In this document: positions 1,145-42,871 of the stretch, piece after piece
How positions within the stretch are numbered: the first letter of the stretch is position 1
Layout of the letters: each line of letters starts with the position of its first letter
Assembly (NCBI GenBank): GCA_001600455.1
Contig: BCKC01000005.1
Span: 1,116,001 to 1,180,000 of the forward strand
Length of the DNA: 64,000 nt
Direction: 5' to 3'
Source of the DNA: Endocalyx cinctus
Lineage: Eukaryota > Ascomycota > Sordariomycetes > Amphisphaeriales > Apiosporaceae
Notes under the pieces: generated by a model
The model's database searches: none
Told to the model about the DNA's origin: nothing
What the model saw: only the letters and a program-made list of their open reading frames with translations
Position numbers and translations under genes: made by a program

Positions 1145-3826
1145 ATGGCGGACTCTATCGAAGTCATGGATAATGATGGTTCTGTCAGAGAAGAGGAGGA
1201 CGGCTTGGAAGTACCCGACCAACAGACAGGAAAGCCGAAGAACTCATGTAAAGATGAAGGTCCAGCGTAGGTAGTATCTATCATCTTATTATTATTTATT
1301 TTCACATTTCAGACCCCCACATGATGAGCCAAAATACGCCCCGGCTCTGTTGTGCTGATTAACTTCGTACCTAGGTGTCACTCTTGTCGGAAGAAGAAAG
1401 CCAGGTGCTCGAGAGAGCAGCCATGTTTTCACTGTGAAAAAAATAGTATGTTCTCCTAACTTTATACGAGCTCCTAGCTAGGCATTAAATACTTCAAGAT
1501 ATACAGTGCGTTTACGATGACAGAAGAGCCAAACCGGGTGTGAGAGCAGGAGCAATTGATAGTCTCAGCAACCGAATCTGTAAGGATACACGACCATAAG
1601 CTCATAAATTCTATGCTTTACGCTTACCAAAAAATAGCTTCGCTCGAGAACATGTTCCTAGGCCAAGGTTTGCTTTGGCAACAAGTGTGGCGCTGCATAG
1701 AGGCATTGGAGAACAGAAATACATCGGGGGCTCCCGAATTCCCCGAAAATGTGATCTCCGAAGACCCTGAGAAGAGCCTTTCAAACTATGCGCAGCAACT
1801 TAGGAACACCCTTTCCTCCCTTGGAGATAGTGGACAAAATGGGAGAATTGATGCTGCGGAAAACTTCAGACCGAAAAAGAGGCGACGGCAAGAAACTCCG
1901 ATAATGGATACCAATCCATCCGCAGCGTATAATTATGATATGACCGAATTTCAGAACAATGAATGCCAGCTACCACCTCGTGACTTGGTAGATGACTTAG
2001 TCGAGATATTCTTTGCCCGGATACACCCGTGGATACCGATGCTCCACGTCCGCCGGTTCCGCGACCGGCTTGCCTCTCCTCTCGAGCGCGACCGCCAAAC
2101 GACTATTTTATACGCAATTACCTCCGTATGCGCACAACTCTCCGAAGACCCCCGTCTGGGTAATTCGCTATCGAGATCTAACTTGTCTCGACGATGTCAC
2201 CAAGTTGTGATCATCCGTTGCATGGACTCGTTCTCGGTGCAGAATTTACAAGCGCTCATAATCTGCAGCTTTAATACAGTAGGCACCTCGCTCCAATTCA
2301 CCGCGAGTTTTACTAACTTTTAGCAAAGATAGGGAATGGTCATGGTCCGTCATCTTGGGTATGTTGTCTACGGTTGTTCTACCCTTCTCTACGTGATATG
2401 ACGTCTGGCTAACTGGCCTAGTCGATAATTGGATCGATGGCTAGAACTGTAGAGCAGTTGCAACTAAGCGTGGAAGAGGACGATAAACCCCAATTTTTAA
2501 GAGGTAAAAATGTGCTGATCAAGCGGATGGCTTTCTTACCGCCATCCCAGGACTGGATAGAGACGGAAGAACGAAGACGCGTGTTTTGGAACATATTCCT
2601 CATGGATCGGTTCTGCAGCATCGCGACCGGTTGGAACCTTTGTCTGACCAGTGTTGATGTGAAACGACGCTTGCCCTGTGAAGGTGCTCTATGGGAAAAG
2701 GGGGATCCACTCAAGACCCCAACCCCGTACTTTGGCGTATCGGATCAGTCGAGTCAGTCGGCCAACACGCTTCCCAGTCCAAGACCAGAGACGGATGATC
2801 CCGAGTATCTCGGGGGATTCGCGTGGTGCATAGAGGCGACCGAAAGCTTGAGCTTAGTCACGTCTTTCTTCCTCCAACAAGCCGTCGATGTCACTCGTAT
2901 GCACGAGGTTCAAGTGTGGTTAATGAGGTTCAAGCAGTTGGATCTCCGTCTCATTCAGTGCGTTACTGAGTTACTCGAGAGTATCTATATATATACTGAT
3001 ACATTGTTCTAGATGGAAGTTATACCTCCCGGAGCAATGGCGCGAAGCTTGTGTATTGAATATTGACGGCAATATGGACCCGAACTTGACCCTGGCACAC
3101 ATGACTCATAATACCGCAGCAGTTCTCTTACATCAGGGTATCGCTTACCCTTCAGAAAAATGGAAGACGGTACCGGTGATGCTACCATCCGTATCGAGCG
3201 CCGAAACATGTCTTTCGGCTTCCACAGAAGTAGCAATTATTGCCGAAAAGTTTATCCAGGACACGATATGCCTAACCAATCCTCAGTTCGCCTTCTGTCT
3301 ATTCATATGCGGACGCATGTTCCTGGCCCACGCATCCTACTACGGCGTGATCTTATCGCCGAGCTTCCATTCCATCGTCAACAGTTTACTGGAAGTATCG
3401 CGAAGATGGAACGGTCCGCACAGCGTCTCCGACACGTCGGGGAATCTGGCCGCCAAGTTCGCCTCCCGCTTGATGCAGGCGCAGCAGCGCGGTCCGGATT
3501 CCCTGGATATCCGACAAGCGGCGTACTACGAGGCTCCCGAGTTTTCCTCGGATGTAGAAGCCGGCGCTGGAGAGATTCTGACCGAACACGACACCTCGCC
3601 GGACAGCATGACCTTGGCGTTCCCTCCCTTGCCGCCATCTTTCCAAGCCCCTGTTCTGACGTCCAAGAACGGGCAGGTTGACGTGAATGTGCCTATGCTC
3701 CACACGCAGGGCATGTACGGGAACCATAGCCCTGATTGTAATGATACCCTGGAGAATCTGAACTCGTTATTTGATTATAGCATGATGCCAAATCAACGGA
3801 TTAGTCAATTTTCTAATATTATTTGA
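1145..3826 (+). CDS. Zn2Cys6 fungal-specific transcription factor, 764 aa, seven exons
   Basis: Exons by my splicing are 1145-1266, 1375-1445, 1499-1579, 1638-2278, 2329-2358, 2422-2957 and 3013-3826; all phases agree. Residues about 42-68 form a Zn2Cys6 cluster with spacing C-x2-C-x6-C-x5-C-x2-C-x6-C, beginning CHSCRKKKARC. The linker KPGVRAGAIDSLSNRI and a short coiled segment (SSLENMFLGQG) follow, as in many fungal DNA-binding regulators. The middle carries the fungal-specific factor domain (DDLVEIFFARIHPWIPMLH, then ARTVEQLQLSVEEDD). Exon 5 is a 30-nt microexon needed to join the domain in frame. It is the first gene of the polysaccharide cluster, so a pathway-specific activator role is likely by position. 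I cannot assign it to a named regulator such as XlnR or RhaR. Confidence 0.88.
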
Positions 3827-4605
3827 TGAGGGAAAATAGGGCACATACCTGAAGGAGTCGTTTCATGAGAAGCTTGGGTATTGATTGATATTTATCTTAC
3901 TTTTAATTAACGTGACATACGGGTCCAGGTCATGGATATTTTGAGGGGTAAATAGACTTGAAAATTGGCAAGTCGATTAAAGGTTAAACCTGCAAATGTA
4001 CTATCAGTGGAAAAGCGATGATTTTCGGCAAGTTATTTGGGTATCGGAACGGCAGATTGTAAGCATCCTGATAGAAGATGTAGAGTTGGTAAAATGTATA
4101 TATACAGACCATTTACGGTATAGACGAACTACTGTATTGGTGAAAGAAAGCTCCCACTCGGCCAGTCACTTCCACCAGCATAGGTGTCAACATCATGCAC
4201 ATTAATCAGTATACTATTTTTCGAAAGAAAAGGAAACTAATCCACGATCATGTTTACTCTGAATAGAAGACCATTTCGCAGCTCTCGAGGTTATATCGAT
4301 TGCCCAGTTCCTGTCACGTAGGCTGGTAGGTGGATGGGGCTCCCTTAATGATCGTATGTACTGTGTACATATACTGTATACATACTGTGATTGTCTCTTC
4401 TAACCTGCCCCTTTTACTATATTACGATATGCCTATAGCCATATTTTTCATATTAATGAATCGAAATTTTCAAAAAAAAGGGGGACGAATGAGGTGGCAG
4501 TGGTGGACGTACTTTACTGTGCGTATTATTGACTTTACATGATTTTGAGATTTGATACTTTCTTATTAATAGATTATAGATAAAAGATTTCTCCGAGCAG
4601 GTCCA
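3827..4605. other. Convergent intergenic region
   Basis: This spacer separates the 3' ends of the transcription factor and the beta-helix hydrolase, so it should hold two 3' UTRs. It is AT-rich and I see no repeat or coding frame with protein-like content. Confidence 0.5.
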
Positions 4606-6096
4606 TTACGATGAAAACGTGAGGTTATTCACATGTTCTCCGGATATCATGGGAATATAATCCGAGGTGAGATAATACCCCGGCTTTACCATACCGTCCC
4701 AAATGTGGTTGCCGTTTATTGTCAGGTTTTGAAAATCGATCAAGTCAATGGACCTATCTTCCGCGTAGCCGCCTATGAACGCCGTGTTTGATCCCGACCC
4801 ATTGTAGATTAGATTCTTAATAGTGACGTTCTGAATGCCGCGACCCGGCGCCGTGTTGTAATCAGTGTTGTAGACGACACGCATGCTCAGAAGCATCCCC
4901 AACCGAAAGTCTTCGACTCTTATATCATCAAACATGACATTTTTTATTAAGTTGTCATCTCCAACTGTGAAGGCGATGCATCCTTGGTAGTTGATTTGTG
5001 GCTCTCTTTGGTCCAGAATATCGACATTCTGAACGAGGACGCCATCCATGGTCTCGGGGTCTTCTGGGTTGCCATGAGTGCCTATATTGATCGGATGCGC
5101 CACATCGGCCCAAAGAGATGAATCGCGGATCGTTATGTTGGATGAGTTGCCGTAGAATTCGTTCCGGTGTTGGTATAAGGCGATGCAGTCGTCTGACGTT
5201 CGAAGGAAAACCCTCTCCACCAATACATCCTGACAACAAAAGAAGTCTAGCCCATCTCCATATGTGACAGCACTGACGCTCTTAAGACCTCTGACAGTAA
5301 TACCCTTGGATGACCCCGCGGTGATGGTGAAAGCCCCTGGGTTCATAACGGCGATTCCGTCTACTGATACGTTTTCTGAAAAGCTGATGCGGATCGCACC
5401 GTCCGATGGCTTGTAGATGATTCCACGACCACGGATCGCTACGTTACTCGCGTTTGATACGGAAACACTTCCGGATACTACGGCCCCGGACGCGAGGTAT
5501 AGCGTCTGGCCGGAAACAAGGCTCACGCCATCCGGAACTGAGTGATATCCGGCGCCATAGTAGACGATACTGCTATCATTGCCAGCTTGCTCAGCCGTGA
5601 TGGGATCCGTTTCTATTGAATTGGTCCATAAATGGAGAACATTGAAGACGTCGTCATTTATCTCCAATAAAATATCGCGGAATGGCTGAGACAAAGTAAA
5701 CGTGATATTTCCATCTATCACCTCTGTCTCTATTCCATAAGAAAGCGGTCTGATAATCGCCGAAGAAATAGACGGGAAAGCAGTCGCATTGGGCGTGATC
5801 ATGAATTCGACTGTTTCATCGAAATCTAACATCCCTACAGTGGATGAGTGTGTGACTGCATTTCCGGTACTGGAATTGATTTCGTGGAGGTTGACTTCAT
5901 ATAAAGGTATCTGCTCCCAAGCGGCCTCGGCTACACCTGATGGACGGGCTAGTGCAGAATATGCTGTAGAACCGGTTGCTTCGTCGGGCTTTGAGGGGAC
6001 TGATAGCTGCGCCGCCGCTGACACTGCCGTGAAGATATACAAAATCCAGAGAAGGATTCCATAGTTAGTCCTCAATAAACGGGATGAACAAGCCAT
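4606..6096 (-). CDS. Secreted GH28/GH49-like right-handed beta-helix glycoside hydrolase, 496 aa
   Basis: A single-exon gene. I start it at the ATG at 6096 because it puts a signal-peptide core (ILLWILYIFTAVSAAAQ) near the N terminus. Residues about 35-170 resemble the N-terminal beta-sandwich found before the helix in GH49 and some GH28 enzymes (IIRPLSYGIE, ITFTLSQPFRDILLEIND). The rest is a parallel beta-helix with repeated SNVAIRGRG, NITIRDSS and NVTIKNLI coils. Acidic candidates for catalysis are TYGDGLDFF and TSDDCIALY; NIGTHG resembles the GHG strip of polygalacturonases. The classical NTD and RIK motifs are not obvious, so the substrate is uncertain. It is divergently transcribed from the lyase-like gene at 6681 and shares its promoter. 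Many N-glycosylation sequons fit a secreted enzyme. Confidence 0.85.
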   Translation of the reverse strand: MACSSRLLRTNYGILLWILYIFTAVSAAAQLSVPSKPDEATGSTAYSALARPSGVAEAAWEQIPLYEVNLHEINSSTGNAVTHSSTVGMLDFDETVEFMITPNATAFPSISSAIIRPLSYGIETEVIDGNITFTLSQPFRDILLEINDDVFNVLHLWTNSIETDPITAEQAGNDSSIVYYGAGYHSVPDGVSLVSGQTLYLASGAVVSGSVSVSNASNVAIRGRGIIYKPSDGAIRISFSENVSVDGIAVMNPGAFTITAGSSKGITVRGLKSVSAVTYGDGLDFFCCQDVLVERVFLRTSDDCIALYQHRNEFYGNSSNITIRDSSLWADVAHPINIGTHGNPEDPETMDGVLVQNVDILDQREPQINYQGCIAFTVGDDNLIKNVMFDDIRVEDFRLGMLLSMRVVYNTDYNTAPGRGIQNVTIKNLIYNGSGSNTAFIGGYAEDRSIDLIDFQNLTINGNHIWDGMVKPGYYLTSDYIPMISGEHVNNLTFSS

Positions 6097-6680
6097 GTTG
6101 ATCAAGGTTGAGCATAGACCTAGAATAATCTCAGCTTTAATTAACTAGGCACGACGCTGTTTGGGCTTTTTGTTTTAGTGCGTATATCTATATATAAGCT
6201 TCCCAGCCAAAATTATACGAAATATGACGCAACACTTCCTACTCCATGTAATTACACCATTGCTTCTATTTTCGGAATACTATGCTATTCTAATTACCGT
6301 ATCTCCGTACCAAATTTTTCGACTATATGATTCGTGGAAGTAAACTCATCTAAGCCGGGCGTGGCGGTCTGGAGCGCGGAGTAATCGCCGGCCCAAGTGC
6401 CGAGTACCGGCTCTTATAGTATCTGTCCCCCGCAACCGAGCCGGGGGTCTTTATGATAGACCGGAATTTTTCGAGTTTTCGGAGTCCGTTTATAATGTTA
6501 TGTAATGTAGGTCCTATATGTACCGAATAATTAATATTTTCCGTACGATGTAGGAAAGAGAGTAATGTGGAAGAGGGAATAAAGGGTAGGGAAATATATG
6601 GTATTTCGGCCATTCGTCTACACGGTCGCGCTATCTTCTTTGATATTTCGAGAAAATTGTGCAGATACTCTTTTTCAGCT
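6097..6680. promoter_or_regulatory. Divergent promoter shared by beta-helix hydrolase and lyase A
   Basis: This 584-bp spacer drives both flanking starts. It contains the composite motif at 6377-6410 and a CGGAGTCCG inverted triplet at about 6480, a typical layout for Zn2Cys6 binding. A TATATATAAG run near 6190 is a possible TATA element for the hydrolase. Confidence 0.55.
6377..6410 (+). promoter_or_regulatory. Putative cluster regulatory module, copy 1
   Basis: CGGAGTAATC at 6377-6386 is followed 13 nt later by CCGAGTACCGG at 6400-6410. The same pair, with similar spacing, lies before the transporter at 8534. It ends 271 bp before lyase A and begins 281 bp from the hydrolase start. CGG triplets are the usual half-sites of Zn2Cys6 proteins. 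Confidence 0.5.
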
Positions 6681-8322
6681 ATGACTCTACAGGTGGTTGG
6701 GTTCCTAGGGATCTTGATAAGTCTTACGCTAGTCCCTCGCGTTTCGTCGACGGGTCCTCTGAGTGGCTTACCAATACTCAACGGTCCTATCCCCCTAGTC
6801 CCAGACTTTGAAGGAAGAAAGAGCCGCGTGGGAGAGTTCATACATCCAGGAATATGGCATACGCACGACGATCTCGAGCGCATAAGGCTGGGTGTTGAGA
6901 ACGAGTTGGAACCATGGGCATCTGCCTACGTGAATTTTAGCACAAATTCATTTTCACAAGCTAGTGTACGTAGTTCTCTTCCTTATGAATCATCAGTAAC
7001 CAAAAAGAACAATACGATGATGCTTTGAAAATATTCCACTGATTGGATACAGTACTCTAATCTGCCTTAATAGTATGAAATGAAAGGGCCCGCAAGCGTT
7101 CTCTGTCGCGGAACCTGCAGTAACTTCACCAGTTTCACGGAAGATGCCCGCGCCGCCTACCAAAACGCGCTTCAATGGTATATCACCCGGGACCAAGGCC
7201 ACTGGGACCGAGCTACGAGCATCCTGGATGCCTGGGGTACGAACCTCACGAGCATAATAGGAACCGATATCTCCCTTCTTGTTGCCCTCGAAGGCGACCT
7301 ATTCGTCAACGCTGCCGAAATCATGAGATGGGAAGGCGGTTGGGTAGAAGCTGGCGCGGCGGCGGCGGGCGGGACGGGGTTTTCGAATCAGTTGTACTGG
7401 CTGTTTGCGAGGCAGTCGTTGATTATTGGTCAAGCTAACTACGGCATGGCTAGCATCAAGGCGTTGCTCTCGTTTGCTGTTTACCTCGATGACGTTTCCA
7501 TGGTATTACTACCCTTGACAAGATGCATCTGTGAATAATTAATGACGATAGCGCTGATATAATTTCTCTAGTATAATTATGCTCTATACTCCTACCTAAA
7601 CGACCCCTGTGCAGGTATATACGGCAATTTTGATCCCAATACAGGACAGAGTGCGGAGGTGGGTCGAGATCAAGGTCATACGCTGACCGGACTTGGCTGG
7701 GCGGCCGAAGCAGCTCGGACAATACAGTCTCAGGGAACAGACGTTTATTCCCTTCAGGATAACTTGTTACTCAAAGCGGCAGAATACGCAGCCAAATATA
7801 ATTTGGGATATGAAGTTGCATATGATCGAAAGTTCTATCGCTGCGAAGCCATCTTGGTCAACGGGCCATGGTCAGCACCATCGAATATCAGTCGAGGAAT
7901 TAATCCAAGTACCCGTATATGGGATGTAAGTTCTTCTTTTATCCGTCAAGCCTAGTGAATCATTTTCATTATGTGTGCTGACTTGGCAAAGATTCTTTAT
8001 CATCAGTACGTTGTTAAAAGAAACCTGTCCGCCACCTATTTGCCGGAAATGAAAGCCGCGATCGATGCAGCAGGCGGAGAAGAGATTAGTAAGTTATCTG
8101 ATATGATTCAATGCTAGCTATAACCACGTTGTATGTTTTATAATTTAATCTCTAACATCTGTTATGAAAGCTACGGACTCAAGTGCGGATGACCATCCCG
8201 GTTGGGGGGAACTCATTTGGTCCTACCCATCAGAGGGCACTTTTATGAATAATAACAACAGAACCATATGGGGTGGAGGGGCAATTGGACCGGAGGGACT
8301 TGGAAACTTGAATTCTCAATAG
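6681..8322 (+). CDS. Secreted alginate-lyase-fold (PL38/PL5-like) protein A, 438 aa
   Basis: Exons are 6681-6965, 7074-7502, 7572-7925, 7992-8088 and 8171-8322. The ATG at 6681 is chosen because a signal peptide follows (VVGFLGILISLTLVPRVSS). The mature part starts with the family block FIHPGIWHTHDDLERI, then AYQNALQWYI, FVNAAEIMR, SAEVGRDQGHTL and EYAAKYNLGYEV. These match the alginate_lyase Pfam fold (alpha/alpha toroid). The R-D-Q-G-H block and the Tyr-rich YAAKYNLGY block are probably active-site elements. Known relatives cleave uronic acid polymers such as alginate or glucuronan. It is a distant paralogue of the gene at 14303-15626. It lacks the Trp/Cys-containing SNWDFCN segment of that copy, having QANYGMASI instead, so its specificity may differ. 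Confidence 0.83.
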
Positions 8323-8886
8323 TTGTATGCAGATTGAGATTTCGATTCTATGGCGTCCGTAAATCTATCTACCCTACTCATGACCGTAAATCTAAATTTA
8401 ATGACTGCTCCATATAATAACTTTTCATACCTTAACATGAAAGTCCGTATGTGTACATAGCCTAGATCAGCGTTGCACGTAGTTTTGTTGGTAATTATGT
8501 GCCAAGGTCAGGAAATATACGAACAGCGGCCACCGGAGTAATCACTGGGCAGTCCCCGAGTACGCGGCATTACATCCATGTACCCGCATAATTGCAAATG
8601 ACATCAAGCACCAGACGTCCTTAATTATGAAAAGACATAATCTATACTCGTATCGTATCGAGTTGTCTACCAATGGAACATCTATCGCCGCGAAAATATC
8701 CAAGCGCCCTAGTAGGCGTGTTCGTGAGCCGTGATTTATCTGAAGGGAGATTTTGGATCGGTCGTCGAGTACTTCAAATGTCCCGTTCTTGAAAGATAAA
8801 CCTTAACCAACCGTATCTTTACCAAACTAATTATTATTCATAACTCCTTCCGTGGTTCCTACTATTGTATCATACATATCTAAGAA
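8323..8886. promoter_or_regulatory. Promoter region of the Dal5-type transporter
   Basis: This 564-bp spacer lies between tandem genes and holds the 3' UTR of lyase A and the transporter promoter. It carries the second copy of the two-part module. No repeat or coding frame is evident. Confidence 0.5.
8534..8567 (+). promoter_or_regulatory. Putative cluster regulatory module, copy 2
   Basis: CGGAGTAATC at 8534-8543 is identical to the copy at 6377. CCGAGTACGCGG at 8556-8567 follows at nearly the same distance (22 versus 23 nt start to start). It ends 320 bp before the transporter start. Confidence 0.5.
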
Positions 8887-10762
8887 ATGGCGAACACCAA
8901 AACGAACGATCAGGAGGTATCATTGGGCAATGAGGGGAGCGCCGTCAATTCGAGCCATAAACAAGATGCTGAGGTCAGCTCAATCCCTCTTGCCGAGCAG
9001 TGCTTCATATTTAACGTATTTTAAATCCAGACCGCTGCGTATGCAAGCAATCATCCCATCCAAATCGATGAGGAGACAAACAAGAAATTGTTCTGGACCA
9101 TCAACAGACGCATCCTCGCGACTATGTTGGGAACCTATTTCTGTCAGAGTCTAGACAAGGGCACTCTCGGATTCTCGAGTATCATGGGAATTCGCGAGGA
9201 TGCGCATCTAGTCGGAAGTCAATTCAATTTGCTTGGCACGATTTTTTACCTAGGAGTTTTGGTTGCTGAGTATCCGACCAATTTTCTGCTGCAGAAATTT
9301 CCTGTGGCGAAGTACTTGGCAGTTAATGTTTTCTTATGGGGAGTCGTTATCACGTTTTCTGCTATAGCCAAAGACTTCGGCGGTCTCTTGGTTGTACGTT
9401 TCTTACTGGGGATATTCGAGTCTTGCGTCCAACCTTCCTTCACTATTATTACTTCTATGTGGGTGGGTAGAATTCATCTCGTCTGTGCTCCCCGTGGAAA
9501 CATTTAATATACTGATTGAAGTTTTCAGTACACCAAACAGGAGCAGTCACTGCTCACAAGCCTCTGGTATTCCATGACTGGAGTCCAATTAATGGTAGAG
9601 TTTCAACACCTTCCCCCTTCTTAAATCATTATCGATGACTCTAATATCCCACAGATTGGCGGTATTATTGCTTGGGGCGTCTCGCATTACGAAGGTCGAG
9701 TTCTTTTCCCGTGGCAACTGCTTTTCCTGGTGCTGGGATTGGCGACTGTCGTCTGGTCGTTTTTCATCGGCTGGTGGCTCCCAGACTCGCCCATGAAAGC
9801 TAAATGCTTTGACGAAGATCAAAAACGTCTCATGATCGAACGAGTCAGGGTCAACGAAACAGGTATCCAAAACAAATTTTACAAGAAGTATCAGGCTGTA
9901 GAGGCTTTGAAAGATCCCGTCATCTGGTGCTACGTCTTCCTCCAAGTCACTTCGACGCTAGTGATAGGCGGGTTGGGAGTGTTTTCAAATATTATAATTG
10001 CCTCCTTCGGATTCACCTATTTACAGACTCAGCTTCTTAATATTGCTCAAGGCGCCGTGACCGTCATGATCATGGTTGGGGGCGCTTGGTTAGCCACTTC
10101 AACAAAACAAACAGCTATAGTTATGCATGTCAGTTAACACAAGAAACATTTTCATAAGTCACTTGCTGATTATCTACAGATATGGACTTTACCACCGATC
10201 GTGGGGACTGCTATTATTTATTGTATCCCACCATCCCAGTCGACACGCATTGGGCTGTTGATTGCCTTCTACGCAACGCAATTCTATCTCGCGGAGGGAA
10301 ATTTAATTATTTCTCTTATTTCTAGGAATGTCGCCGGTCAGACAAAGAAGTCGACAACGTTATCCCTGACGTTTGTGGGTTGGGCCTTGGGAAATGTTAT
10401 AAGTCCTCAGGTAAGTACTCCCAACTTAATTATCGGACAAAATAGATGCACGACATCACAAGCTTACGCTGAGATGGCAACAGGTATTTCAATCATCCGA
10501 TGCGCCACGCTACAAGAAAGGATTCGCCGTTCATTTTACATTATACGTCCTATTTAATATTATTTTGATCATTCTTCGTATTCTCTTAAGTCGTCGAAAT
10601 ACGGCTAAAGTGGTTGGTGGAATCGAGACATCATCCCCTTCTCCTTCCTATGGGGAAAAGGGGTTGGCTTCTCCTGAGAACGGAGAGCCTGTCGTGGCAC
10701 ATGCACATGCGTTTGAAGATCTGACTGATATGGAGAATCCGGACTTCCGCTATGATATCTGA
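8887..10762 (+). CDS. MFS transporter, anion:cation symporter (Dal5-like), 522 aa
   Basis: Exons are 8887-8973, 9031-9462, 9529-9594, 9655-10128, 10180-10410 and 10484-10762, all joined in phase 0. The protein has a short polar N terminus, then KLFWTINRRILATMLGTYF leading into helix 1. About twelve membrane segments follow, with features of the Dal5/allantoate permease family (LDKGTLGFSSIMGI, EYPTNFLLQKFP, and LPDSPMKAKCF before the central loop). Members import organic anions such as allantoate, nicotinate or hexuronate-type acids with protons at the plasma membrane. Lying between two uronate-lyase-like genes and a GH35 gene, it plausibly takes up the released unsaturated uronic acids or small acidic oligosaccharides. 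That substrate is inference. Confidence 0.88.
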
Positions 10763-11437
10763 AATACATAGAGTGATATAACAGTCGGAATTGTTGATTG
10801 TATCCCATCAACTTATTTTGGGCATAATAATAATTGTATCGTGCTTAAGACCGAGGTGCATGAATAGCTATTTTAGTACTGTAGCGGGAATTTGTACAGG
10901 GCCACAAGCGTTGTAACACTTTTAAAATAGCAACAAGCGTTGTGAAATCCACAACGCTTAAAATTGAATTAGGAGTTTTTTTTTTTTTTTTTTTTTTTTA
11001 CAACTATTCTAAAATTTAGAGCGCTTGTGAACGCCCTGTAACTCACGGTACAGTAGTTATGTTAGGTACTTAAACACTGCTAATACTACCTGGAATAGCG
11101 TCGTTGATACTGTTAATTATAGCGAGTTTAGTGTTATTATATTCCTTATTCGTCGTCGCGATAGGGCAATAGATTTACAGTGAGAGTAGTGAGTACCCCC
11201 CCCTGTAATTTGGCGCATGCACCTTGCAACAGCAGTATTAATAACGGTCAGTAATAATTGGCAGTGGTAATTCCCTATTAGGAGATCTCCTAGGCTGCTA
11301 GGTTAAGTAAGTACTTAATACTTTGGTTTAGTATAAGTTTTTAATTGACTGAACTTGACTCACAGCTACAGATCAAGTAACTGAAAACCAATGTGTAAAT
11401 AAGATATAAAGGAACCCCGATGCGTAAATATCATAAC
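10763..11437. other. Convergent intergenic region containing a MITE-like element
   Basis: This spacer lies between the 3' ends of the transporter and the GH35 gene. Apart from the 175-bp inverted-repeat element at 10879-11053 I see no feature; the rest is AT-rich. Confidence 0.5.
10879..11053. mobile_element. MITE-like non-autonomous DNA element with TA target duplication
   Basis: The ends form imperfect terminal inverted repeats of about 50 bp. The left arm starts CTGTAGCGGG and includes TACAGGGC and CACAAGCG. The right arm, read in reverse, starts CTGTACCGTGAG and includes TACAGGGC and CACAAGCG. TA dinucleotides flank both ends, as expected for Tc1/mariner-type insertion. Inside are a perfect 10-bp hairpin (10935-10944 with 10950-10959) and a run of 24 T at 10976-10999. 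It has no coding capacity. Confidence 0.55.
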
Positions 11438-13375
11438 TCATGTGGAAGTTGGAGCATCAGGATCATACATGTTGCCCCATACCCTTACGGAGTGTCCCTG
11501 TGCTACGAGAGCCCCAGTCCCGGGCGTGGGTTCAAGTTCCAAAACCAAGAGCTCGTTATCTTCATCTTTCTTTAGAAAACATCCAGGAACATACAAGCTC
11601 TGCTGAGGACCGATATTCCAATACCTTCCGAGTTGAAATCCATTCACCCATGCGACCCCTTTCAAACCACCTTTGATTTCAAGGTAGGTATCCCTCGCCG
11701 AATCGGCATCTCCTGTAACGGTGGGTCGTAGAATACCTTGGTAAAGCGTTGGCGTGTCCGTGACGTTGATCGACTCACTCTCACTCGACCAGTTAGGAGC
11801 CGACAGAAGCGGTAGCGAGTACATGGACCAGTCCGTAAGCAACCTCCCATCGCCTATCGTGACGTTGCCTACAATCCCTTTCTTCTGCTCGTCCATCTCG
11901 TGTTGAAAGCTGATGCGACCGAGATTCTCTACGAGTAGTTGTAGATTGTCCCCGGGGGTTAAATCTACCGTGATTGGATCCCAGTAAGCGTAAGTCTTGC
12001 TCTGAACTCCTACGCGCTGTCCGTTGACGTAGGCGAGAACTCTGTCACGAGGGCCGTCTCCGATTTCAAGGTCTCCGCTGATCGCCGACTGGACGATATG
12101 TTCGTAGAGTACGAAGCCGAGGGATTGATTGAGCGCCTCCATGTGCAATGGGAAAGACTCCTCTGCAGTCGGTTCTGCCAGATTGTCGAAAAGAGTTGTA
12201 ATTGCACTAAGTTCGATTTCGGGGGTGCTCATAAGCGGTACGTTTTCCGGGACCGAAGGCAGTTCTTGCGGTAATGCGTAAGACTCGATATAACTGCGCA
12301 ACGTGTTGAATAAAGGCGTGACGCGGCCACTTTCGTCCAATGGTGCGCCATAATCATAGCTCGTAGTAACTGGATCTAAGTACTGATTTCCGTCCCATAG
12401 ACATGACGAACTGAAGTTCCAATTCGTGCCTCCGTGAAACATGTAGAAATTGATAGAGTGGTTCCCCCCAAGCATGACCTGGATATCATCCTTGGCGTAC
12501 AGCCCCTGAAAGTACGTTCCTCCCGTGAATATGTGAGATGCGTTGGAACCCCAGCTGTCGAACCACGTTGTGTAGTACTCGCCGTTGAGGAGGGGTCCGA
12601 GGCTCGAAGGGTCGGTGACTGTTTCTCGCGCCGCAATTCCGGGCACTGCCTGTCCATCGAACACAGATAATGCACCCGGGACTTGTCCATTCGCCAGATT
12701 TTCTTGGTTCCCACTGTCTGTCGTATAAAAGGAAATATCAAAGTTGGACCGCAGACCATCCGAGAGTGCTTGAGTGTATTCGTGGTCATCTCCATAGCTC
12801 CCATACTCATTCTCAATTTGGAGCATCAACAGCGGTCCTCCTTGAGTTACTTGTAAGGGTGCAATCTCTTCAGCCAGTCTATCGAAATATGTACGCACGG
12901 CAGAAAGAAATGGTTCATTATTGCTTCGTATCGTCATGTCCGGAATTTCCAGTAGCCAAGATGGGAGCCCTCCCCATTCGTGTTCAGCCCCGATGAATGG
13001 ACCAGGGCGTAACACCGCTGTCATATTCTCTTGTGCGATAAGCTCTAACCAGCTCGCCACATCATTTCTATCCTCAAAGCTCCATTGGCCGGGAGTTGGT
13101 TCAAGTTCGTTCCAGAAGACATACGAGAAAATCGTGTTCAAGCCCATGGCGCGAGCCTTGGCTATTCTGTCACTCCAATACGGTCGCGGAACACGTTGGA
13201 ATTCCATTTCACCTCCGATAATCTGATATTGCTCTCCATAAAGATAGAACAAGGTATCGTCGTATGTAAAGGGAGCCGAGGCATTCTGTGCGGCCACAGA
13301 AGCCAGCATCATAGCAGAGAAAATGGCCGTGGATAGAATGGTCCGGCTAGACCAAATGAAATTACTTAGATGCAT
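11438..13375 (-). CDS. Secreted GH35 beta-galactosidase, 645 aa
   Basis: A single-exon gene with a signal peptide at residues 1 to about 29 (ILSTAIFSAMMLASVAAQ). The catalytic GH35 TIM barrel follows: IIGGEMEFQRVPRPYWSDRI, SYVFWNELEPTPGQW, RPGPFIGAEHEWGGLPSWLL. QIENEYGSYG holds the acid/base Glu at about 190 and NGEYYTTWFDSWG the nucleophile Glu at about 266. MFHGGTNWNFSSS is the family's substrate-site strand. The C terminus holds the usual jelly-roll domains (GVAWVNGFQLGRYWNIGPQ). At 645 residues it is shorter than the ~1000-residue Aspergillus LacA type and closer to the compact plant/animal/bacterial form. It probably removes terminal beta-galactose from side chains of the cluster's substrate. 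A motif shared with lyase B lies about 300 bp upstream. Confidence 0.95.
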   Translation of the reverse strand: MHLSNFIWSSRTILSTAIFSAMMLASVAAQNASAPFTYDDTLFYLYGEQYQIIGGEMEFQRVPRPYWSDRIAKARAMGLNTIFSYVFWNELEPTPGQWSFEDRNDVASWLELIAQENMTAVLRPGPFIGAEHEWGGLPSWLLEIPDMTIRSNNEPFLSAVRTYFDRLAEEIAPLQVTQGGPLLMLQIENEYGSYGDDHEYTQALSDGLRSNFDISFYTTDSGNQENLANGQVPGALSVFDGQAVPGIAARETVTDPSSLGPLLNGEYYTTWFDSWGSNASHIFTGGTYFQGLYAKDDIQVMLGGNHSINFYMFHGGTNWNFSSSCLWDGNQYLDPVTTSYDYGAPLDESGRVTPLFNTLRSYIESYALPQELPSVPENVPLMSTPEIELSAITTLFDNLAEPTAEESFPLHMEALNQSLGFVLYEHIVQSAISGDLEIGDGPRDRVLAYVNGQRVGVQSKTYAYWDPITVDLTPGDNLQLLVENLGRISFQHEMDEQKKGIVGNVTIGDGRLLTDWSMYSLPLLSAPNWSSESESINVTDTPTLYQGILRPTVTGDADSARDTYLEIKGGLKGVAWVNGFQLGRYWNIGPQQSLYVPGCFLKKDEDNELLVLELEPTPGTGALVAQGHSVRVWGNMYDPDAPTST

Positions 13376-14302
13376 CTTAGAAATGGTAGATGACTTATCA
13401 GATCAAGCTGAAACGATATAAAATAAAGTATATAGTATGATCAGTCTAAAGACAATCTCCCCCATTGATGATGAAATAATGCCAGGTCTTTCACAATAAC
13501 CCGTATTTCATATGGCTTGCCTTGAAAAGTACAGAAAAGATATAGATCTCCAGGTCCATTTTCGACGGTAAACTGTCTGGTTTCATTCAATATATGGTAT
13601 CAGTTATTGATTTAGAAATAAAGATTTCATGAGCCTGTATCATTCAGCTCCGCCCTGGTCCGTGGATTGATTCCCGGTACTAATACCCCGCGGAGCGACG
13701 TCGTATTTGTTTGGAGAGCGGCACGGCCCGAGACATACCCCGGTGGCTCGAAAGGCAAATATGACGTATGGTCCTCATTACCGATACCACAATAACACGA
13801 TATCGAGACGTGTTTATGATGGTTAGGAAGTAGTTCTCTTCGTTTTTCTATACTAGTATCATGAGCGAGAAAAGTCCCAAATAACGTTTATATGAAATCC
13901 CTACGAGCTCGCTATAACTGCACACACGAATATGAAAATAGTATTCATATGAATTACCATATTTATCGAAGATTATATCCGAAAGTTAGGGAAAGGAAAA
14001 TATGAGATAAGTCCTTGAGAAAGAATCTAATCATAGGAAATTGTACATGGCGCTACCTCCCACACTATGGTGTGATTCTGTACCTCCGTATCAATTCATG
14101 GTTAATTCGAGGGAGAGATCATTTACAAGCAGAAGAATAGGATAAATTTAATGCAATAACTACATATAATAATTCGAATAGCAATTTTGTAACCAAGCAA
14201 TTTAGTTCCTCGTCGAAAAGACTCGCCCCTTTTTAACAATAATTATAGGCGATGCCAGAGCACGACCATGCCCTATAGTCATTACCGATAAAGACCAGGT
14301 GT
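13376..14302. promoter_or_regulatory. GH35 promoter region and 3' UTR of lyase B
   Basis: Both flanking genes are on the minus strand, so this 927-bp spacer contains the GH35 promoter. It carries the motif at 13674-13691. The remainder is AT-rich with no coding signal. Confidence 0.5.
13674..13691 (-). promoter_or_regulatory. Putative cluster regulatory motif before GH35
   Basis: On the coding strand of GH35 this reads GCGGGGTATTAGTACCGG. It lies 299 bp before the start codon. The same AGTACCGG core with an upstream GCGGGG occurs before lyase B, and the core also occurs in copy 1 at 6403-6410. Confidence 0.5.
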
Positions 14303-15626
14303 TCACAGACGATACAGAAGTGTACCATAACCTAAATCGTCGAACCCACCACTGGTATCACCATAATTTCCTCCGCCGCCTTCGACGCCATCGGTGCTGT
14401 TTCCGTTGGTCTCGTCGATATAGAGTTTTGTCCATGAAGCATCAAGGCCTTTCACGCCCGCGTAATGGGCATAAACAAGCTCGTACCCTGGCCTGTGAGT
14501 GTATCTGCTACTGGTCGAAATCTCGGTCTCATTTCCCAGGTAGCTGTTGTACCAGGTGTAAGGGACGTCGTAACCGGTATTATACTTAGCAGTGTATTCA
14601 GAAGCAGCCAAGCCTGAGTTGTCCAGAACAGACCATAGGTCGTCTCCTTGGTTATAACCCTGCTGCATAATGACTCCCATAAGCGTGATATCCAGTGTCG
14701 CATGGCCCTGGTCTCTACCCGCTTCTTGACCTTGGGACAGTGGTTTTCCAGTGCCCTCTTCAGTGTAGTTCTTGTAGATAAAGTTCCCAATTGCTCCTCG
14801 GCCGTCTCCAGACAAGAAATAGTTCTTGGCGTAGTCGTACATCGTTTGGTTGTCGCTATACACACCAATAGCCATAATACTTGCAACATTACAGAAGTCC
14901 CACTACAATAAAAGGCATTAGCAATTAATATTTCGGTCGAAAGCAATGAGTGATGAATCATGTCTTAAAACTCCTGTCCTTTAACAAGAATGGATTGAAA
15001 AGCCATTTTTGTAACACCCTAAACCGCAGAAAAGAATGACTCTGGTTCTCACTCACATTTGACCAATAGTGGTATTCATCTTGACCATTATGCGTCGTCA
15101 AGAATCTATAGTTCTCGTGGTAGAACGTATTGAGGAGCATCGTCTTGAACTGGGTCTGCGAGGCCTCATCCCAGCCCTCGTAGGAGCGTACGAGCTCGGC
15201 CGCGTTTACCATCTGGTACCCGTAGATACCGGCCGCCAGGAAGAGATCGGAGTTGCCGGCGATCGCGACAAGGGTAGATCCCCACGCGTTCAAGATGTTG
15301 ACGGCGGCATCGGCGTACTCCGCGACTCCCTCGATGCTCCACCGAAGAGCGAGCTGATACGCCGCGTGCGCGTCGTTGTACAGGACGCCGTAGTTTTCCC
15401 CGTGCTCGCCGTCGTCACCCCGGTAGACTGTGGGCTGCGGGTTGGGCTCGTAAGTTGGCTGGGCGCGCGCGTTACTGATAAGCAGTTGCCAGTCGGTGTT
15501 CCATGGCTCCTCGGCCGCGTTGACGTGCCCTTTGATGCGAGTTAGGTCATCAGCGGTGTGAAGCAAGCCCGGATGAACGAAAGCTGCGCTGGTTGACAGC
15601 GCGGTGAACCAGATGAGAAGTTTCAT
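14303..15626 (-). CDS. Secreted alginate-lyase-fold (PL38/PL5-like) protein B, 389 aa
   Basis: Two exons, 15626-15057 and 14902-14303, joined in phase 0 to give HYWSNWDFCNVAS across the junction. A short signal peptide (MKLLIWFTALSTSAA) precedes FVHPGLLHTADDLTRIKGHV, the same opening block as lyase A. Further family blocks are AAYQLALRWSIEG, MVNAAELVRSYEGW, YHENYRFLTTHNGQDEYHYW, GQEAGRDQGHATLD and EYTAKYNTGYDVPYTW. The protein should act outside the cell on a uronic acid polymer by beta-elimination. The family is known for alginate and glucuronan lyases; the exact substrate is not decided by sequence. The His/Tyr/Arg blocks are intact, so it looks active. Confidence 0.86.
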
Positions 15627-15877
15627 TTTGTTGGCATTGATGAATTTTTGCCGACGGTGTTGAATGATTAGTATTTTCGGACTATGACGCTGACTTGGCT
15701 AGGTTTATATACCATCTTTCTTATCGACGTATATTTCCACCTAGAGCTACTGTGCATGGAACCTTGAAATCATAAAACCATCATCACTCTCTACGACTTG
15801 CAAATTGACGGGTGCGTCCCCTGTCTTGACAGGGGACGACCTTGGGAGCGATCCACATAGCAGTAGCGGCGCAATTT

Positions 15878-15893
15878 CCGGTACTTTCCCCGC
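15878..15893 (-). promoter_or_regulatory. Putative cluster regulatory motif before lyase B
   Basis: On the coding strand of lyase B this reads GCGGGGAAAGTACCGG, 252 bp before the start codon. It matches the GH35 motif in both the GCGGGG half and the AGTACCGG half. Confidence 0.5.
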
Positions 15894-16942: not shown

Positions 16943-19010
16943 TTAGAACACTGTACCTCTGGTCTCCTTCTCTTCCTTTTCTGTATCCTTTACGTTGATA
17001 TTCTTCCATACCAGGACAGCAACGGCAACAAGAGGAATCAAGGAAGCACCAACGATGACCATCTTCCTAGCTACATAGGCATACGCCATGATGACCGCAT
17101 CACGTACGGGGTGTCCGATTGGGTATTTCAATTGCTCCGTTATGTCTTCAAAGATCTCGAATGACTGCGACTTGTACTCATCAGGGAGGAAATCATAGAG
17201 CTTGTAGGGCAGAATGTTGTTCCATAGGCCTCCAGCGACGGCGTAGCCAACCGAGGATCCGATGGAGCCGAAAAGACCGTAGAGGGCGATGGCAACGGCT
17301 ACGTTCTGATGCCCCACAACAGCCATCAGAGCTAGTTGAGACATGGTGGTTAAAACACCGACTCCGAAACCTGTGATGATCTGACACATGGTAATGTAGC
17401 CTACATATGCCGAAGGTGTTCGAAAGTGGACAATCAGGGCTGTCCCGAGAGCATAAATTGGGACAGCGACTAACGCTGGGTATTTGACACGGCCGGTCCA
17501 TCGAATGTAGCTATGATATCAATTAGTTTTCTTCTTGTATGGTATTAATCAACTTCAATGAAACATACAGGGCAACGAAGGGACCGGTAAAATATGAGGT
17601 AAGCGAATATCCGTTCAAGACATAGTTGGAGTTGCTGATGCTTAACCCGTGAACCACTTGAAGATAGGAACTGTAGTATCCATTCCAAATACTACGATGA
17701 CTTGTTAGCATTGGAAAAGTCTTGAGCGAGTAATCCACTTACAAAGTAGTCAGGAATACGAGGCAGTATGTCGTCACAGCTCCCATAACAGTCCTGTCTT
17801 TCAGAAGTTCGAATGGGAAAAACATGACAGGGGCCATGAACTTCTCCCACGCAAGGAAGCCAGCCAGGAGAAGAACTCCTAAGACGATCATTACGATGAG
17901 ACCGGCGCTAGCCCATCCATTCGCCGAACGGGACGTAAGACTGAAAGGTAGAAGAAGGAGCGTGAAACCCGCCGAGATGAGGATCATTCCAATTACTAGA
18001 TACAACCAAGACATGTATCAGTGTCACATTAACCCAAATTTTCGGGGGTGTCAATCTATCACTAACCATCAAACTGGATAAAATAATGCTTCAGCGATTG
18101 CAACGTTGTGCGGCCTGATCCTTTGCGAATCATCCCAGCTTTCTTAGCTTTGCGCTCGTGGAAGTATAAGATGGCGATCACGGGCAAGGAAAAGCCGACC
18201 AAGATGATAGCGAAAGCGCCATAAGCCCATCTAAAGTTAGACTTGTAGTAGAAGAGTTCGGCGATTCGGGGGCCAGCAAAGGTGGTGATAAGAAAAGGTG
18301 TCGAATTCAGGGCAAACATAATCATTCGGTTTCTCAACGTGGTAATGTCGGCGACGAAGACGTCAAGAACGAAGTTGATGGCGACGTTGCCAACCCAATA
18401 GAAAACCTGGGCGGCGGCATAGGTCTCAACGTTGCGCGAAATTGCCATCACAATCATGCCGAGAACGACCAAGAAGACGGCCCCAACGAATCCTTCCAGA
18501 CGACCCCGGATATCGATGGTCTTGGCGATGGCGAGCACGATAACCCCGCCGATGATCCTGGCGGCGATGTTGATAATGGCTAGCAATCCGTGAGAAGAGA
18601 ATGCGGACGTGATGTAGGGGGTAAGGGCACCGGAAATGGACGAAATCATGGCTAAGATGAAGCATACGAGCCAAATACTAAAATAAAACCCATTGCGTGA
18701 GCGATTTCTGTCTTCTTCAAACACGCTGTTTTGCGCACGTTACTTGTGCCGAATTATTTTGTAGCACGTTGGAATTTTAAAGGAAATCAAAAGGACACAC
18801 TTACAGAATGAACGTCGTCCACAGCATCTTGGGAGTCCAGACCTTGGTAATGGCCTCGACTTGCTTGACGCCATCTTGCTTGAACTCCGACTCCGAATCG
18901 GTATTCGCAGTTGTTTCGTTCACATTGTGAATTGCCTGTTTCTCCAGGTTCTGTTCTTCCTGGGCCGGGTCGACGGCGACCGGTGCATTGGCGGGAGTGA
19001 TGGCGGCCAT
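16943..19010 (-). CDS. Siderophore-iron transporter, MFS (ARN/SIT type), 586 aa
   Basis: Exons are 19010-18805, 18677-18067, 17995-17743, 17691-17569 and 17510-16943; phases agree. A polar N-terminal tail of about 65 residues precedes fourteen or so membrane helices. Family signatures include SSISGALTPYITSAFSSHG, YYKSNFRWAYGAFAI, the cytoplasmic loop YFHERKAKKAGMIRK, QFDVIGMILISAG, IWNGYYSSYLQVVHG and the large extracellular loop before the last helix. These proteins import ferric siderophores at the plasma or endosomal membrane. The gene is divergent from a ferric reductase, with iron-type GATA sites between them, which supports an iron role. The particular siderophore cannot be told. Confidence 0.92.
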
Positions 19011-19365
19011 TTTAATCGAAGGATTTCAGAATTAAGAGATTGCAATGTAAACTAATTGGTACCTTCTCTAGGCACTCAACAAATTGATGCTGAGGTAGAA
19101 AGAAAGGAATGCGAAGGAAGAAGGGGAAGTCAGCCGCAGATTGATCAAACTCACGCACCAGCTAATCACGCAACTACCCATCTATTAAGTAGGTATGTCT
19201 CGGCACGATGTATTATATACCACAAACTGCATACGAGACCCGGGAAGTTACCTACCTGCCCTACCTAGCTGCCTAGCTGCCTAGCTGCCTAGGAAGTTAC
19301 TGTGGGTCAGCTCACCTACCGTAAGCATTAGGATAGTAAATTGCAGAAAATTTTTTATCTCGATC

Positions 19366-19374
19366 ATCTGATAA
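19366..19374 (+). promoter_or_regulatory. Iron-responsive GATA site (ATCTGATAA)
   Basis: An exact match to the ATCWGATAA consensus of fungal iron-sensing GATA repressors, 356 bp from the transporter start and 376 bp from the reductase start. Confidence 0.65.
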
Positions 19375-19579
19375 AAACTATGTCTGGTAGGTAGCTCGCC
19401 GAAACGGGGCCGATGGCAGGGTCCATTGCATATCACGTTGCATTTATGCGAAGGGATTAAGTCCTTTATTCTTGGCCATGTTCGAGATTTACGTATAATT
19501 AACCATAATCCTGGCCGAAGAAGGATGTGCAATTCTCGTAGTGTTTCTTGGCCCGGAATGAAGGTGGACCATCATTCGG

Positions 19580-19620
19580 ATCTGATAAGATCAAGATTAT
19601 CAGATAAGATGATCAGATAA
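19580..19620 (+). promoter_or_regulatory. Cluster of three iron-responsive GATA sites
   Basis: ATCTGATAA at 19580-19588, ATCAGATAA at 19599-19607 and ATCAGATAA at 19612-19620 lie within 41 bp, 130-170 bp before the ferric reductase start. Three exact nine-base matches at this density are very unlikely by chance. Confidence 0.75.
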
Positions 19621-19749
19621 AATTCCTCGATTATCTAATCCTGTTACCTCTATTGAACAACCTCAAAAATCTCAACATTTTCAGTCGCCCGTTATTAAGG
19701 GGTTTGACATATTATAGTACTTTTTCAGCAGTATAAATAATTATTTGAA

Positions 19750-41576: not shown

Positions 41577-42871
41577 TTAACCCATGATCGCGATAACCAA
41601 AGCAAGGAAACCTAAGGTGTAAGCCGTATACATGTTGATGGATTGCGTGCTGGCAGCAGCCGATGGGGCATCGGTCGTGGCAGCGGCGGCGGTACCACTG
41701 CCAATTGATGTAGCTTCTGTCGAGGTGGTTGACACGGAGACTGCTTCAGTGATTTCACTAGTTTTAGCAGTCGATGTCTTCGAGGCACTAGATGTGCTGG
41801 TTGTAGTCGATTCTGCGACGGTCATTATCGTGGTCGCAGCGAGTACGACTGTTCCCGTAGTAATAGGAGTGGCCGTGCTGTAACCCTGTATTTCGGGAAA
41901 AATCGACAGTTAGTAACCCCATATTATTCTAATATTATGTTGAGGGGGGCTAAGATAAGATACATACCTGTACCGTCCCAGAAATGCTCGTGACTAGAGC
42001 CCAGGTCGAAGCGGTTGTGTCGTCCGTAATGGAAGCCACCGACTTAACCCAGCTAGCAGCTTCTTCCGATATATCATCGTAGTAGCTGAGATGGTCTGCA
42101 ACATTCGAATCATCCTGGTTGGCGGCACATATCGGGTCCGTGTCGCGACACCAGTCGCGCATGATCGAACTGTAGTTGGTGAGAGCTTGAAGCTGGGTCG
42201 TGGTCCTCGGGTATTCGCCGTTGAGGTCGGAACCGGTACCATAATTATACTCCATATCTTCGGTGTGACGGACATTTCCGGCAACGATGACGGCAGCAAC
42301 TAGAGAAGCAAATCACGTTAGCATTAATATTGAGACCAAGAACGTCTTCCTTATTCGTTCGTCAGGAATATCAATCGCTCATGTTAGACTTACTTTGGCT
42401 ACCAGGGCTGGTAGTCCGATCCATCGCAGCTACGGTCGGCTGCACGCAACCATTGAATAATGTTCCGCCAGCACCGCCGAGGATATCGGTCATGATCTGT
42501 GCTCCCTGAGAATAACCTCCTAAGACTAACTTCGCGTCCGGACACCGTGCGGCGTACTCGGCGATCTGTGCGTGTCCGGCTATTGTTCCATCGTAGACGG
42601 TCTGGCAGTAAAGGTCGCTGTAGAGCGCGGAGTAGATGAGATCTTCGTAGTCACAGCTCTTCAATCCATCACATATGGCATTCACCAGCTTTCCTTGCCG
42701 TCCGGGATAAGGCTCATTGTTACCGCGTGCCAAGAATATGTGTACGTCCGTGCAGGCCGAGTCGGCGCGGGCCTTAAGGGCTTCGAGGGGAAGTCGACTG
42801 CATGTTCCCGTAGCGGCAAGAGCGAGTAGGACGCTTCCGGTGGCCCTTGAGAGGGACACGTGGGAAACCAT
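41577..42871 (-). CDS. Cutinase-family (CE5) esterase with Ser/Thr tail and predicted GPI anchor, 372 aa
   Basis: Exons are 42871-42394, 42299-41968 and 41885-41577. A signal peptide (residues 1 to about 24) precedes the CE5 alpha/beta-hydrolase domain. CTDVHIFLARGNNEPYPG opens the domain. VLGGYSQGAQIM holds the nucleophile Ser121. RDTDPICA carries the likely catalytic Asp, and DHLSYYDD the likely His. Cysteines are placed as in cutinases and acetylxylan esterases. After about residue 260 comes a Ser/Thr/Ala-rich, probably O-glycosylated stretch, ending in a hydrophobic tail (AYTLGFLALVIAIMG) typical of GPI-anchored proteins. Most CE5 enzymes are short and freely secreted. It probably hydrolyses cutin-like polyesters or acetyl groups at the cell surface. 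Confidence 0.9.

What the first reader, a model, noticed from the sequence alone, without database searches (positions are those of the whole stretch)
1145..15626. Candidate fungal gene cluster for breakdown and uptake of a uronic-acid polysaccharide
A Zn2Cys6 regulator, a beta-helix GH28/GH49-like hydrolase, two alginate-lyase-fold proteins, a Dal5-type anion transporter and a secreted GH35 beta-galactosidase sit together with nothing unrelated between them. Four are secreted enzymes, one is a transporter for acidic products and one is a regulator. That is the fungal counterpart of a bacterial polysaccharide utilisation locus, and such tight CAZyme clusters are uncommon in fungi. The substrate could be a galactose-decorated glucuronan, alginate-like or pectic polymer.
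Basis: partly seen in the sequence, partly recalled or inferred. Interest (0 to 1): 0.78.

Follow-up and report, generated by a model that had tools for sequence, protein, structure and literature searches.

The report
Fungal acidic-polysaccharide utilisation gene cluster
A fungus carries side by side a regulator, secreted enzymes that probably cut an acid-sugar polymer, a likely importer and, just outside the window, the internal enzyme that would finish the job; part of the set is also kept together by soil bacteria, so it looks like a fungal version of a bacterial sugar-polymer utilisation locus.

Summary
Four further lines favour a functional unit. (1) The next gene to the left, outside the window, encodes a GH88 unsaturated glucuronyl hydrolase, the enzyme expected after a uronate lyase. 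(2) Hydrolase, PL_A and PL_B were each found once in the 44.8-Mb genome. (3) In an even draw of 101 Streptomyces genomes, 17 carry a full-length relative of the hydrolase (18 copies); 18 of 18 have a lyase of this family directly downstream. (4) Two promoter patterns, chosen by eye from these promoters, each match only twice in the genome, together upstream of five cluster genes. Against: linkage in other fungi is partial (4 of 12, 6 of 14, 5 of 16 named organisms per gene pair); in the two nearest relatives PL_B lies on another contig; the full set was not traced elsewhere. Substrate unsettled: probably a polymer with 4-linked uronic acid and beta-galactose; nothing singles out alginate. CAZy families of lyases and hydrolase are not shown. 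Expression was not testable.

The parts
1145..3826 (+). Zn2Cys6 regulator, 764 aa; exons 1145-1266, 1375-1445, 1499-1579, 1638-2278, 2329-2358, 2422-2957, 3013-3826. Its divergent left neighbour, the GH88 gene, lies outside the window (genome C5:1114109-1115827, minus strand) and so cannot be listed as a part.
   Evidence: model; PF00172, PF04082; GH88:
4606..6096 (-). GH28/GH49-like beta-helix hydrolase, intronless, 496 aa
   Evidence: PF00295 35 bits; model and fold
6681..8322 (+). PL_A, alginate-lyase-fold protein, 438 aa; exons 6681-6965, 7074-7502, 7572-7925, 7992-8088, 8171-8322
8887..10762 (+). MFS transporter of the anion type, 522 aa; exons 8887-8973, 9031-9462, 9529-9594, 9655-10128, 10180-10410, 10484-10762
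   Evidence: TIGR00893 188.2 bits, under cut-off 395; sialin nearest solved relative
11438..13375 (-). GH35 beta-galactosidase, intronless, 645 aa
14303..15626 (-). PL_B, alginate-lyase-fold protein, 389 aa; exons 15626-15057 and 14902-14303
   Evidence: relative P0121 modelled, fold
6377..6407 (+). promoter pattern CGGAGTAATC-N-CGAGTAC in the region shared by hydrolase and PL_A
   Evidence: one of 2 matches in the genome, reversed control 0
8534..8563 (+). the same pattern before the transporter gene
   Evidence: the other of 2 matches
13670..13691 (-). promoter pattern GCGGGG-N-AGTACCGGRAAT before GH35
   Evidence: one of 2 matches in the genome, reversed control 0
15874..15893 (-). the same pattern before PL_B
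   Evidence: the other of 2 matches

Best explanation
It is a seven-gene catabolic cluster of about 17.5 kb (GH88, regulator, hydrolase, PL_A, transporter, GH35, PL_B) that works like a bacterial polysaccharide utilisation locus. Inferred scheme: the Zn2Cys6 regulator, on an acidic-sugar signal, switches on four promoter regions that carry AGTAC(N)CGG elements; two secreted lyases cut 4-linked uronosyl bonds by beta-elimination; the secreted GH28/GH49-like enzyme and the GH35 remove other units, the latter beta-galactose; the anion-type MFS carries small acidic, partly unsaturated sugars into the cell; the cytosolic GH88 splits off the unsaturated uronic acid. Shown by calls: gene content, no second copy found of three genes, shared promoter words, bacterial hydrolase-lyase linkage, predicted folds. 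Inferred: activities, secretion, induction, transport specificity, substrate.
For: Gene content. GH88 next door, matching 8 distinct solved sequences of that class at E 1.5e-38 to 2.4e-34. Hydrolase, PL_A, PL_B found once each in the genome. Patterns CGGAGTAATCN{8,18}CGAGTAC and GCGGGGN{1,6}AGTACCGGRAAT at 2 places each, all four in cluster promoters, control 0 each; distances to five start codons 248-324 bp. Bacterial linkage: 18 of 18 full-length hydrolase copies in 17 of 101 Streptomyces genomes have a lyase directly downstream. Fungal linkage of gene pairs, with neighbouring locus tags in three organisms. Lyase-type fold. Transporter nearest to sialin.
Against: Named fungi in which both genes of a pair are listed have them on one contig in only 4 of 12 (PL_A and hydrolase), 6 of 14 (PL_B and hydrolase) and 5 of 16 (PL_A and PL_B) cases; in FL0016 and FL0641 PL_B is on another contig. 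The promoter patterns were picked from the same promoters that they are counted in, and a blind 34-base comparison of two of the promoters was within its null (108 of 300). The stretch between GH88 and regulator has no AGTAC(N)CGG. The 80 bacterial loci hold no relative of the fungal GH88 or GH35, and 6 of the 80 hold no lyase within 8 kb. PL_A scores under the Pfam cut-off. No expression or activity data.
Confidence: 0.75

Rival explanations
1. The cluster is real, but its target is plant arabinogalactan or gum: the lyases act at 4-substituted glucuronic acid in side chains, GH88 splits the unsaturated uronyl-galactose and GH35 takes the galactose. This differs from the best explanation only in the substrate, where a glucuronan-like main chain is the alternative.
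For: GH88 together with GH35 in one cluster. That glucuronic acid in such gums is 4-substituted and linked to galactose is recalled.
Against: The lyase fold is closest to main-chain lyases of PL5, PL17 and PL38 and to a chondroitinase. No arabinofuranosidase or other arabinogalactan enzyme was seen in the cluster.
Confidence: 0.3
2. The polymer is pectic or alginate, as the first reader also allowed.
For: The hydrolase reaches the Pfam GH28 cut-off and its profile matches exo-polygalacturonase. PF05426 is named Alginate_lyase, and the best fold match is a PL5 alginate lyase.
Against: The hydrolase lacks the strings GHG and RIK that mark polygalacturonases (their role is recalled) and over its whole length it is closest to GH49 isopullulanase. 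Sequence searches find no solved alginate lyase for PL_A or PL_B. Enzymes of the PL38 fold relatives act on several polymers, so the fold does not point to alginate.
Confidence: 0.12
3. Only part is a unit: hydrolase and lyases form an enzyme set, while GH35, transporter, regulator and GH88 are neighbours by chance or serve other tasks.
For: In FL0016 and FL0641 hydrolase and PL_A share a contig, PL_B does not. In bacteria only hydrolase and lyases are linked, without GH88 or GH35 relatives. Own-genome GH35 and GH88 families have further members.
Against: The transporter shares a promoter pattern with hydrolase and PL_A, and GH35 shares one with PL_B, each at only 2 places in the genome. GH88 is the expected partner of a uronate lyase. 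Genes without an evident link begin directly outside.
Confidence: 0.18

Closest known systems
N-acetylglucosamine catabolic gene cluster of Trichoderma reesei with regulator RON1 (PMC4950302, passages read)
   Same: Filamentous fungus; clustered catabolic genes with an own regulator and a glycoside hydrolase; regulator and transporter needed for growth on the sugar, per the passages
   Different: Different sugar and enzymes; regulator of the Ndt80 kind, not Zn2Cys6; no lyases or GH88 named in the passages seen
Bacterial polysaccharide utilisation loci and lyase-GH88 systems (general knowledge; Akkermansia PL38 plus GH105 pair in PMC11790493, passages read)
   Same: Lyase, unsaturated uronyl hydrolase, uptake and regulation brought together
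   Different: No SusC/SusD pair here; fungal MFS and Zn2Cys6 regulator instead
Streptomyces operon of hydrolase, long lyase and short lyase found here
   Same: Hydrolase relative at 40-47% identity next to one or two lyases of the same family; fungal PL_B is sister to the short lyase (100/99)
   Different: ABC sugar uptake and LacI regulators nearby; no GH88 or GH35 relative in 80 loci; PL_A does not group with the long lyase
Glucuronan lyases of Trichoderma parareesei, one in PL38 (Pilgaard 2022; paper not held; known from citing passages)
   Same: Ascomycete lyases for a uronic-acid polymer
   Different: Sequence relation to PL_A or PL_B not tested; whether those genes are clustered was not seen

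Membership tests
Fungal catabolic gene cluster | Enzymes, transporter and a regulator encoded side by side | tested here: met
   GH88
Fungal catabolic gene cluster | Shared control of the genes | tested here: inconclusive
   Promoter patterns unique to the cluster, but chosen from the same promoters; no expression data
Fungal catabolic gene cluster | Genes needed for growth on one substrate | not testable with these tools
   needs knock-outs
Bacterial polysaccharide utilisation locus (Bacteroidetes type) | SusC/SusD pair | tested here: not met
   No such domain in the Pfam results for the cluster genes. Works like one, is not one.
CAZy PL38 | Sequence relation to characterised members | tested here: inconclusive
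   No solved relative found for PL_A or PL_B by sequence or profile; another Streptomyces relative touches a Bacteroides ovatus alginate lyase only at E 0.45; no PL38 model was on hand
CAZy PL38 | Alpha/alpha toroid fold | tested here: met
Pfam PF05426 Alginate_lyase | Score over the curated cut-off | tested here: inconclusive
   PL_B 52.2 bits met, PL_A 17.5 bits not met, cut-off 22.2
GH28 | Pfam PF00295 over cut-off | tested here: met
   35 bits, cut-off 22.9
GH28 | GHG and RIK strings beside the catalytic acids (recalled) | tested here: not met
   Neither string occurs in the protein; D281, D284, D302, D303 are invariant in 77 aligned sequences. Hence called GH28/GH49-like, not GH28.
GH49 | Two-domain architecture of isopullulanase and dextranase | tested here: met
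GH49 | Sequence family match | tested here: inconclusive
   No GH49 model among Pfam matches to E 0.1; weak profile match to dextranase 1ogm, E 0.03
GH35 | PF01301 over cut-off and solved relatives | tested here: met
   289.3 bits, cut-off 27; 27 solved sequences at E 0.001 or better, best 2e-112
GH88 | PF07470 over cut-off and unsaturated glucuronyl hydrolase relatives | tested here: met
   28.7 bits, cut-off 26.6; best solved relative E 1.5e-38
Anion:cation symporter (Dal5) type MFS | Match to a specific member model | tested here: inconclusive
   TIGR00893 188.2 bits, cut-off 395; sialin E 1.3e-6

The most novel reading that the evidence does not exclude
A GH28/GH49-like hydrolase and PF05426-fold lyases, both without a shown activity, form an enzyme set shared by fungi, Actinobacteria and planctomycete-type bacteria for one widespread acidic polymer that is still unnamed; in this fungus the set has grown into a complete locus with its own regulator, importer and internal GH88, controlled through promoter elements found nowhere else in the genome.
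Probability: 0.45. Interest if true: 0.75.

Novelty: new variant of a known kind. Interest (0 to 1): 0.62.

Why it matters
Genes for polymer breakdown are mostly scattered in fungi (general knowledge). A compact locus that runs from secreted lyases to an internal GH88, with its own regulator and shared promoter words, gives a small testable model of substrate sensing in fungi. The same enzyme pair in soil bacteria suggests a common acidic polymer whose identity can be sought from either side, and hydrolase and lyase families whose activity is not known.

Tried and rejected
Family of the lyases by PDB sequence search, single and profile: no relative. As a bridge to PL38 I took another Streptomyces protein (L081); it met a Bacteroides ovatus alginate lyase structure only at E 0.45, so PL38 stays open. 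PF08787 (Alginate_lyase2) in the genome: no hit, but the control rang in none of 14 genomes, so nothing follows. NCBIfam gave no family for the lyases. A blind 34-base ungapped comparison of the hydrolase/PL_A and transporter promoters was no better than its null, 108 of 300 resampled pairs reached it; the shared words differ by one base in spacing, which that test cannot see. PL_A groups with a lone Streptomyces protein (96/91), not with the bacterial long lyase.

Literature searches showed no fungal locus of this kind among the rows listed (titles and starts of abstracts; several lists show 10 to 20 rows of hundreds). Most subscription papers are not held, so absence from print is not shown.

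Limits of counts: the homologue tables show the best 120 of 258, 2942 and 2289 matches; one PL_A row without a contig was left out. One search undercounted organisms with the two genes on different contigs because I had typed some names in two forms; one search is the corrected count, with named organisms only (the 2 unnamed metagenome contigs that join PL_A and hydrolase are). Adjacent locus tags were seen for Fusarium falciforme, Neonectria punicea and Plenodomus lindquistii, and tags three apart for Penicillium pulvis. In one search, 20 of 101 genomes had a match; I counted the 17 with a full-length one (E below 1e-190) and left out 3 with weak partial matches only.
Full report
What is there. 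The window is a 64-kb piece of contig C5 of a 44.76-Mb genome in 15 contigs. The best protein matches for three cluster genes are from Xylariales-type fungi, so the fungus is probably of that kind; it is not named. Between 1145 and 15626 lie six intact genes, modelled by hand: a Zn2Cys6 regulator, a GH28/GH49-like hydrolase, lyase-fold protein PL_A, an MFS transporter, a GH35 beta-galactosidase and lyase-fold protein PL_B. Hydrolase and PL_A are divergent and share one 584-base region.

The edge of the window cuts the cluster. I fetched the 20 kb to the left. The first gene there, on the minus strand (genome C5:1114109-1115827), reads as a complete GH88 enzyme without a hydrophobic N-terminus. 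It matches 8 distinct solved sequences of that class, E 1.5e-38 to 2.4e-34, and Pfam GH88 just over the cut-off. Its first intron is unsettled. Beyond it lie a nucleoporin gene and hydantoinase-type genes. To the right of PL_B are an MFS gene and a ferric reductase gene. The set is thus bounded by genes without an evident link to it.

Is it more than chance? Searches of the whole genome find hydrolase, PL_A and PL_B once each; the only other matches of the two lyases are each other. Members of the GH35 and GH88 families occur elsewhere too: GH35 at 4 places in all, GH88 at 4 places in all. Two promoter patterns were noticed by eye and then counted genome-wide: CGGAGTAATCN{8,18}CGAGTAC at 2 places, in the hydrolase/PL_A region and before the transporter, reversed control 0; GCGGGGN{1,6}AGTACCGGRAAT at 2 places, before GH35 and before PL_B, reversed control 0. 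All four sites contain or adjoin AGTAC(N)CGG and lie 248-324 bp from five start codons. In 84 kb that core occurs 10 times, 4 of them in the promoters (binomial 0.0016, not corrected for choosing the pattern). Since the patterns come from these very promoters, this is suggestive and not independent. The stretch between GH88 and regulator has no such site, and a blind comparison of two promoters was within its null.

Relatives in fungi. In the listed homologues, named fungi that have both genes of a pair hold them on one contig in 4 of 12 cases (PL_A and hydrolase, among them the two nearest relatives FL0016 and FL0641), 6 of 14 (PL_B and hydrolase) and 5 of 16 (PL_A and PL_B); two unnamed metagenome contigs also join PL_A and hydrolase. 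In FL0016 and FL0641 PL_B lies on another contig. Neighbouring locus tags were seen in Fusarium falciforme, Neonectria punicea and Plenodomus lindquistii. So linkage recurs but is not general. Regulator, transporter, GH35 and GH88 were not traced in these genomes.

Relatives in bacteria. A profile of the hydrolase brought 80 loci (the best 80 of 571), 78 from Actinobacteria and 2 from planctomycete-type genomes, at 40-47% identity; 74 of 80 have a lyase-family match within 8 kb, 6 have none. An even draw of 101 Streptomyces genomes avoids that choice: 17 carry 18 full-length hydrolase genes, and 18 of 18 have a lyase gene downstream on the same strand, 129-458 bp away by matched ends. The long-type lyase occurs 17 times, 17 of them there; the short type (over 540 bits) 19 times, 16 of them there; a third, middle-scoring type 24 times, 1 of them there; six genomes have lyases without the hydrolase. 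Recurrent neighbours in the 80 loci are ABC sugar uptake genes, LacI regulators, a hydroxyacid dehydrogenase and an esterase. One Phycisphaerae locus adds GH97, GH3 and a heparinase-type lyase, one Glycomyces locus a GH2. No relative of the fungal GH88 or GH35 lies in the 80 loci. In trees the fungal PL_B rows are sister to the bacterial short lyase (100/99) and PL_A is a separate clade; bacterial hydrolases form one clade among fungal and environmental rows.

Reading. The set makes sense as one pathway: lyases outside, uptake of acidic fragments, GH88 inside, GH35 and hydrolase trimming, one regulator. I give 0.75 that it is a functional, co-regulated cluster for a polymer with 4-linked uronic acid. 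Among substrates I favour a glucuronan-like polymer or a galactan that bears glucuronic acid; pectin and alginate are less likely. Missing are expression, activity and a seven-gene survey of fungal genomes.

Novelty. Catabolic clusters are known in fungi (GlcNAc cluster, PMC4950302, passages), and lyase systems with an unsaturated uronyl hydrolase in bacteria. The combination in a fungus, with an enzyme pair shared with Actinobacteria, is a new variant as far as the listed rows of nine searches in an open-access library show.

Noticed in passing
16943-22361: An MFS transporter gene (minus strand, siderophore-type by recall) next to a ferric reductase gene (plus strand): a likely iron-uptake pair to the right of the cluster.
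   Followed up: partly
10976-10999: A run of 24 T between the transporter and GH35 genes, beside a short near-repeat around CACAAGCGTTGTAA and ACAAGCGTTGTGA (seen).
   Followed up: no
41950-43033: A cutinase-family gene on the minus strand (PF01083), away from the cluster.
   Followed up: no
38716-40080: A reading frame with a weak NPHP3_N (NACHT-like) match, 25.3 bits; and a HET-domain frame left of the window in L088 268-1041.
   Followed up: no
L053, 2179-17144: In a Phycisphaerae genome the hydrolase relative lies with a 1524-aa lyase, GH97, a heparinase II/III-type lyase and GH3: a possible larger bacterial locus for the same polymer.
   Followed up: partly
L083, 354-1502: A lone Streptomyces lyase-family protein that groups with the fungal PL_A clade (96/91) and not with the paired bacterial lyases.
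   Followed up: partly
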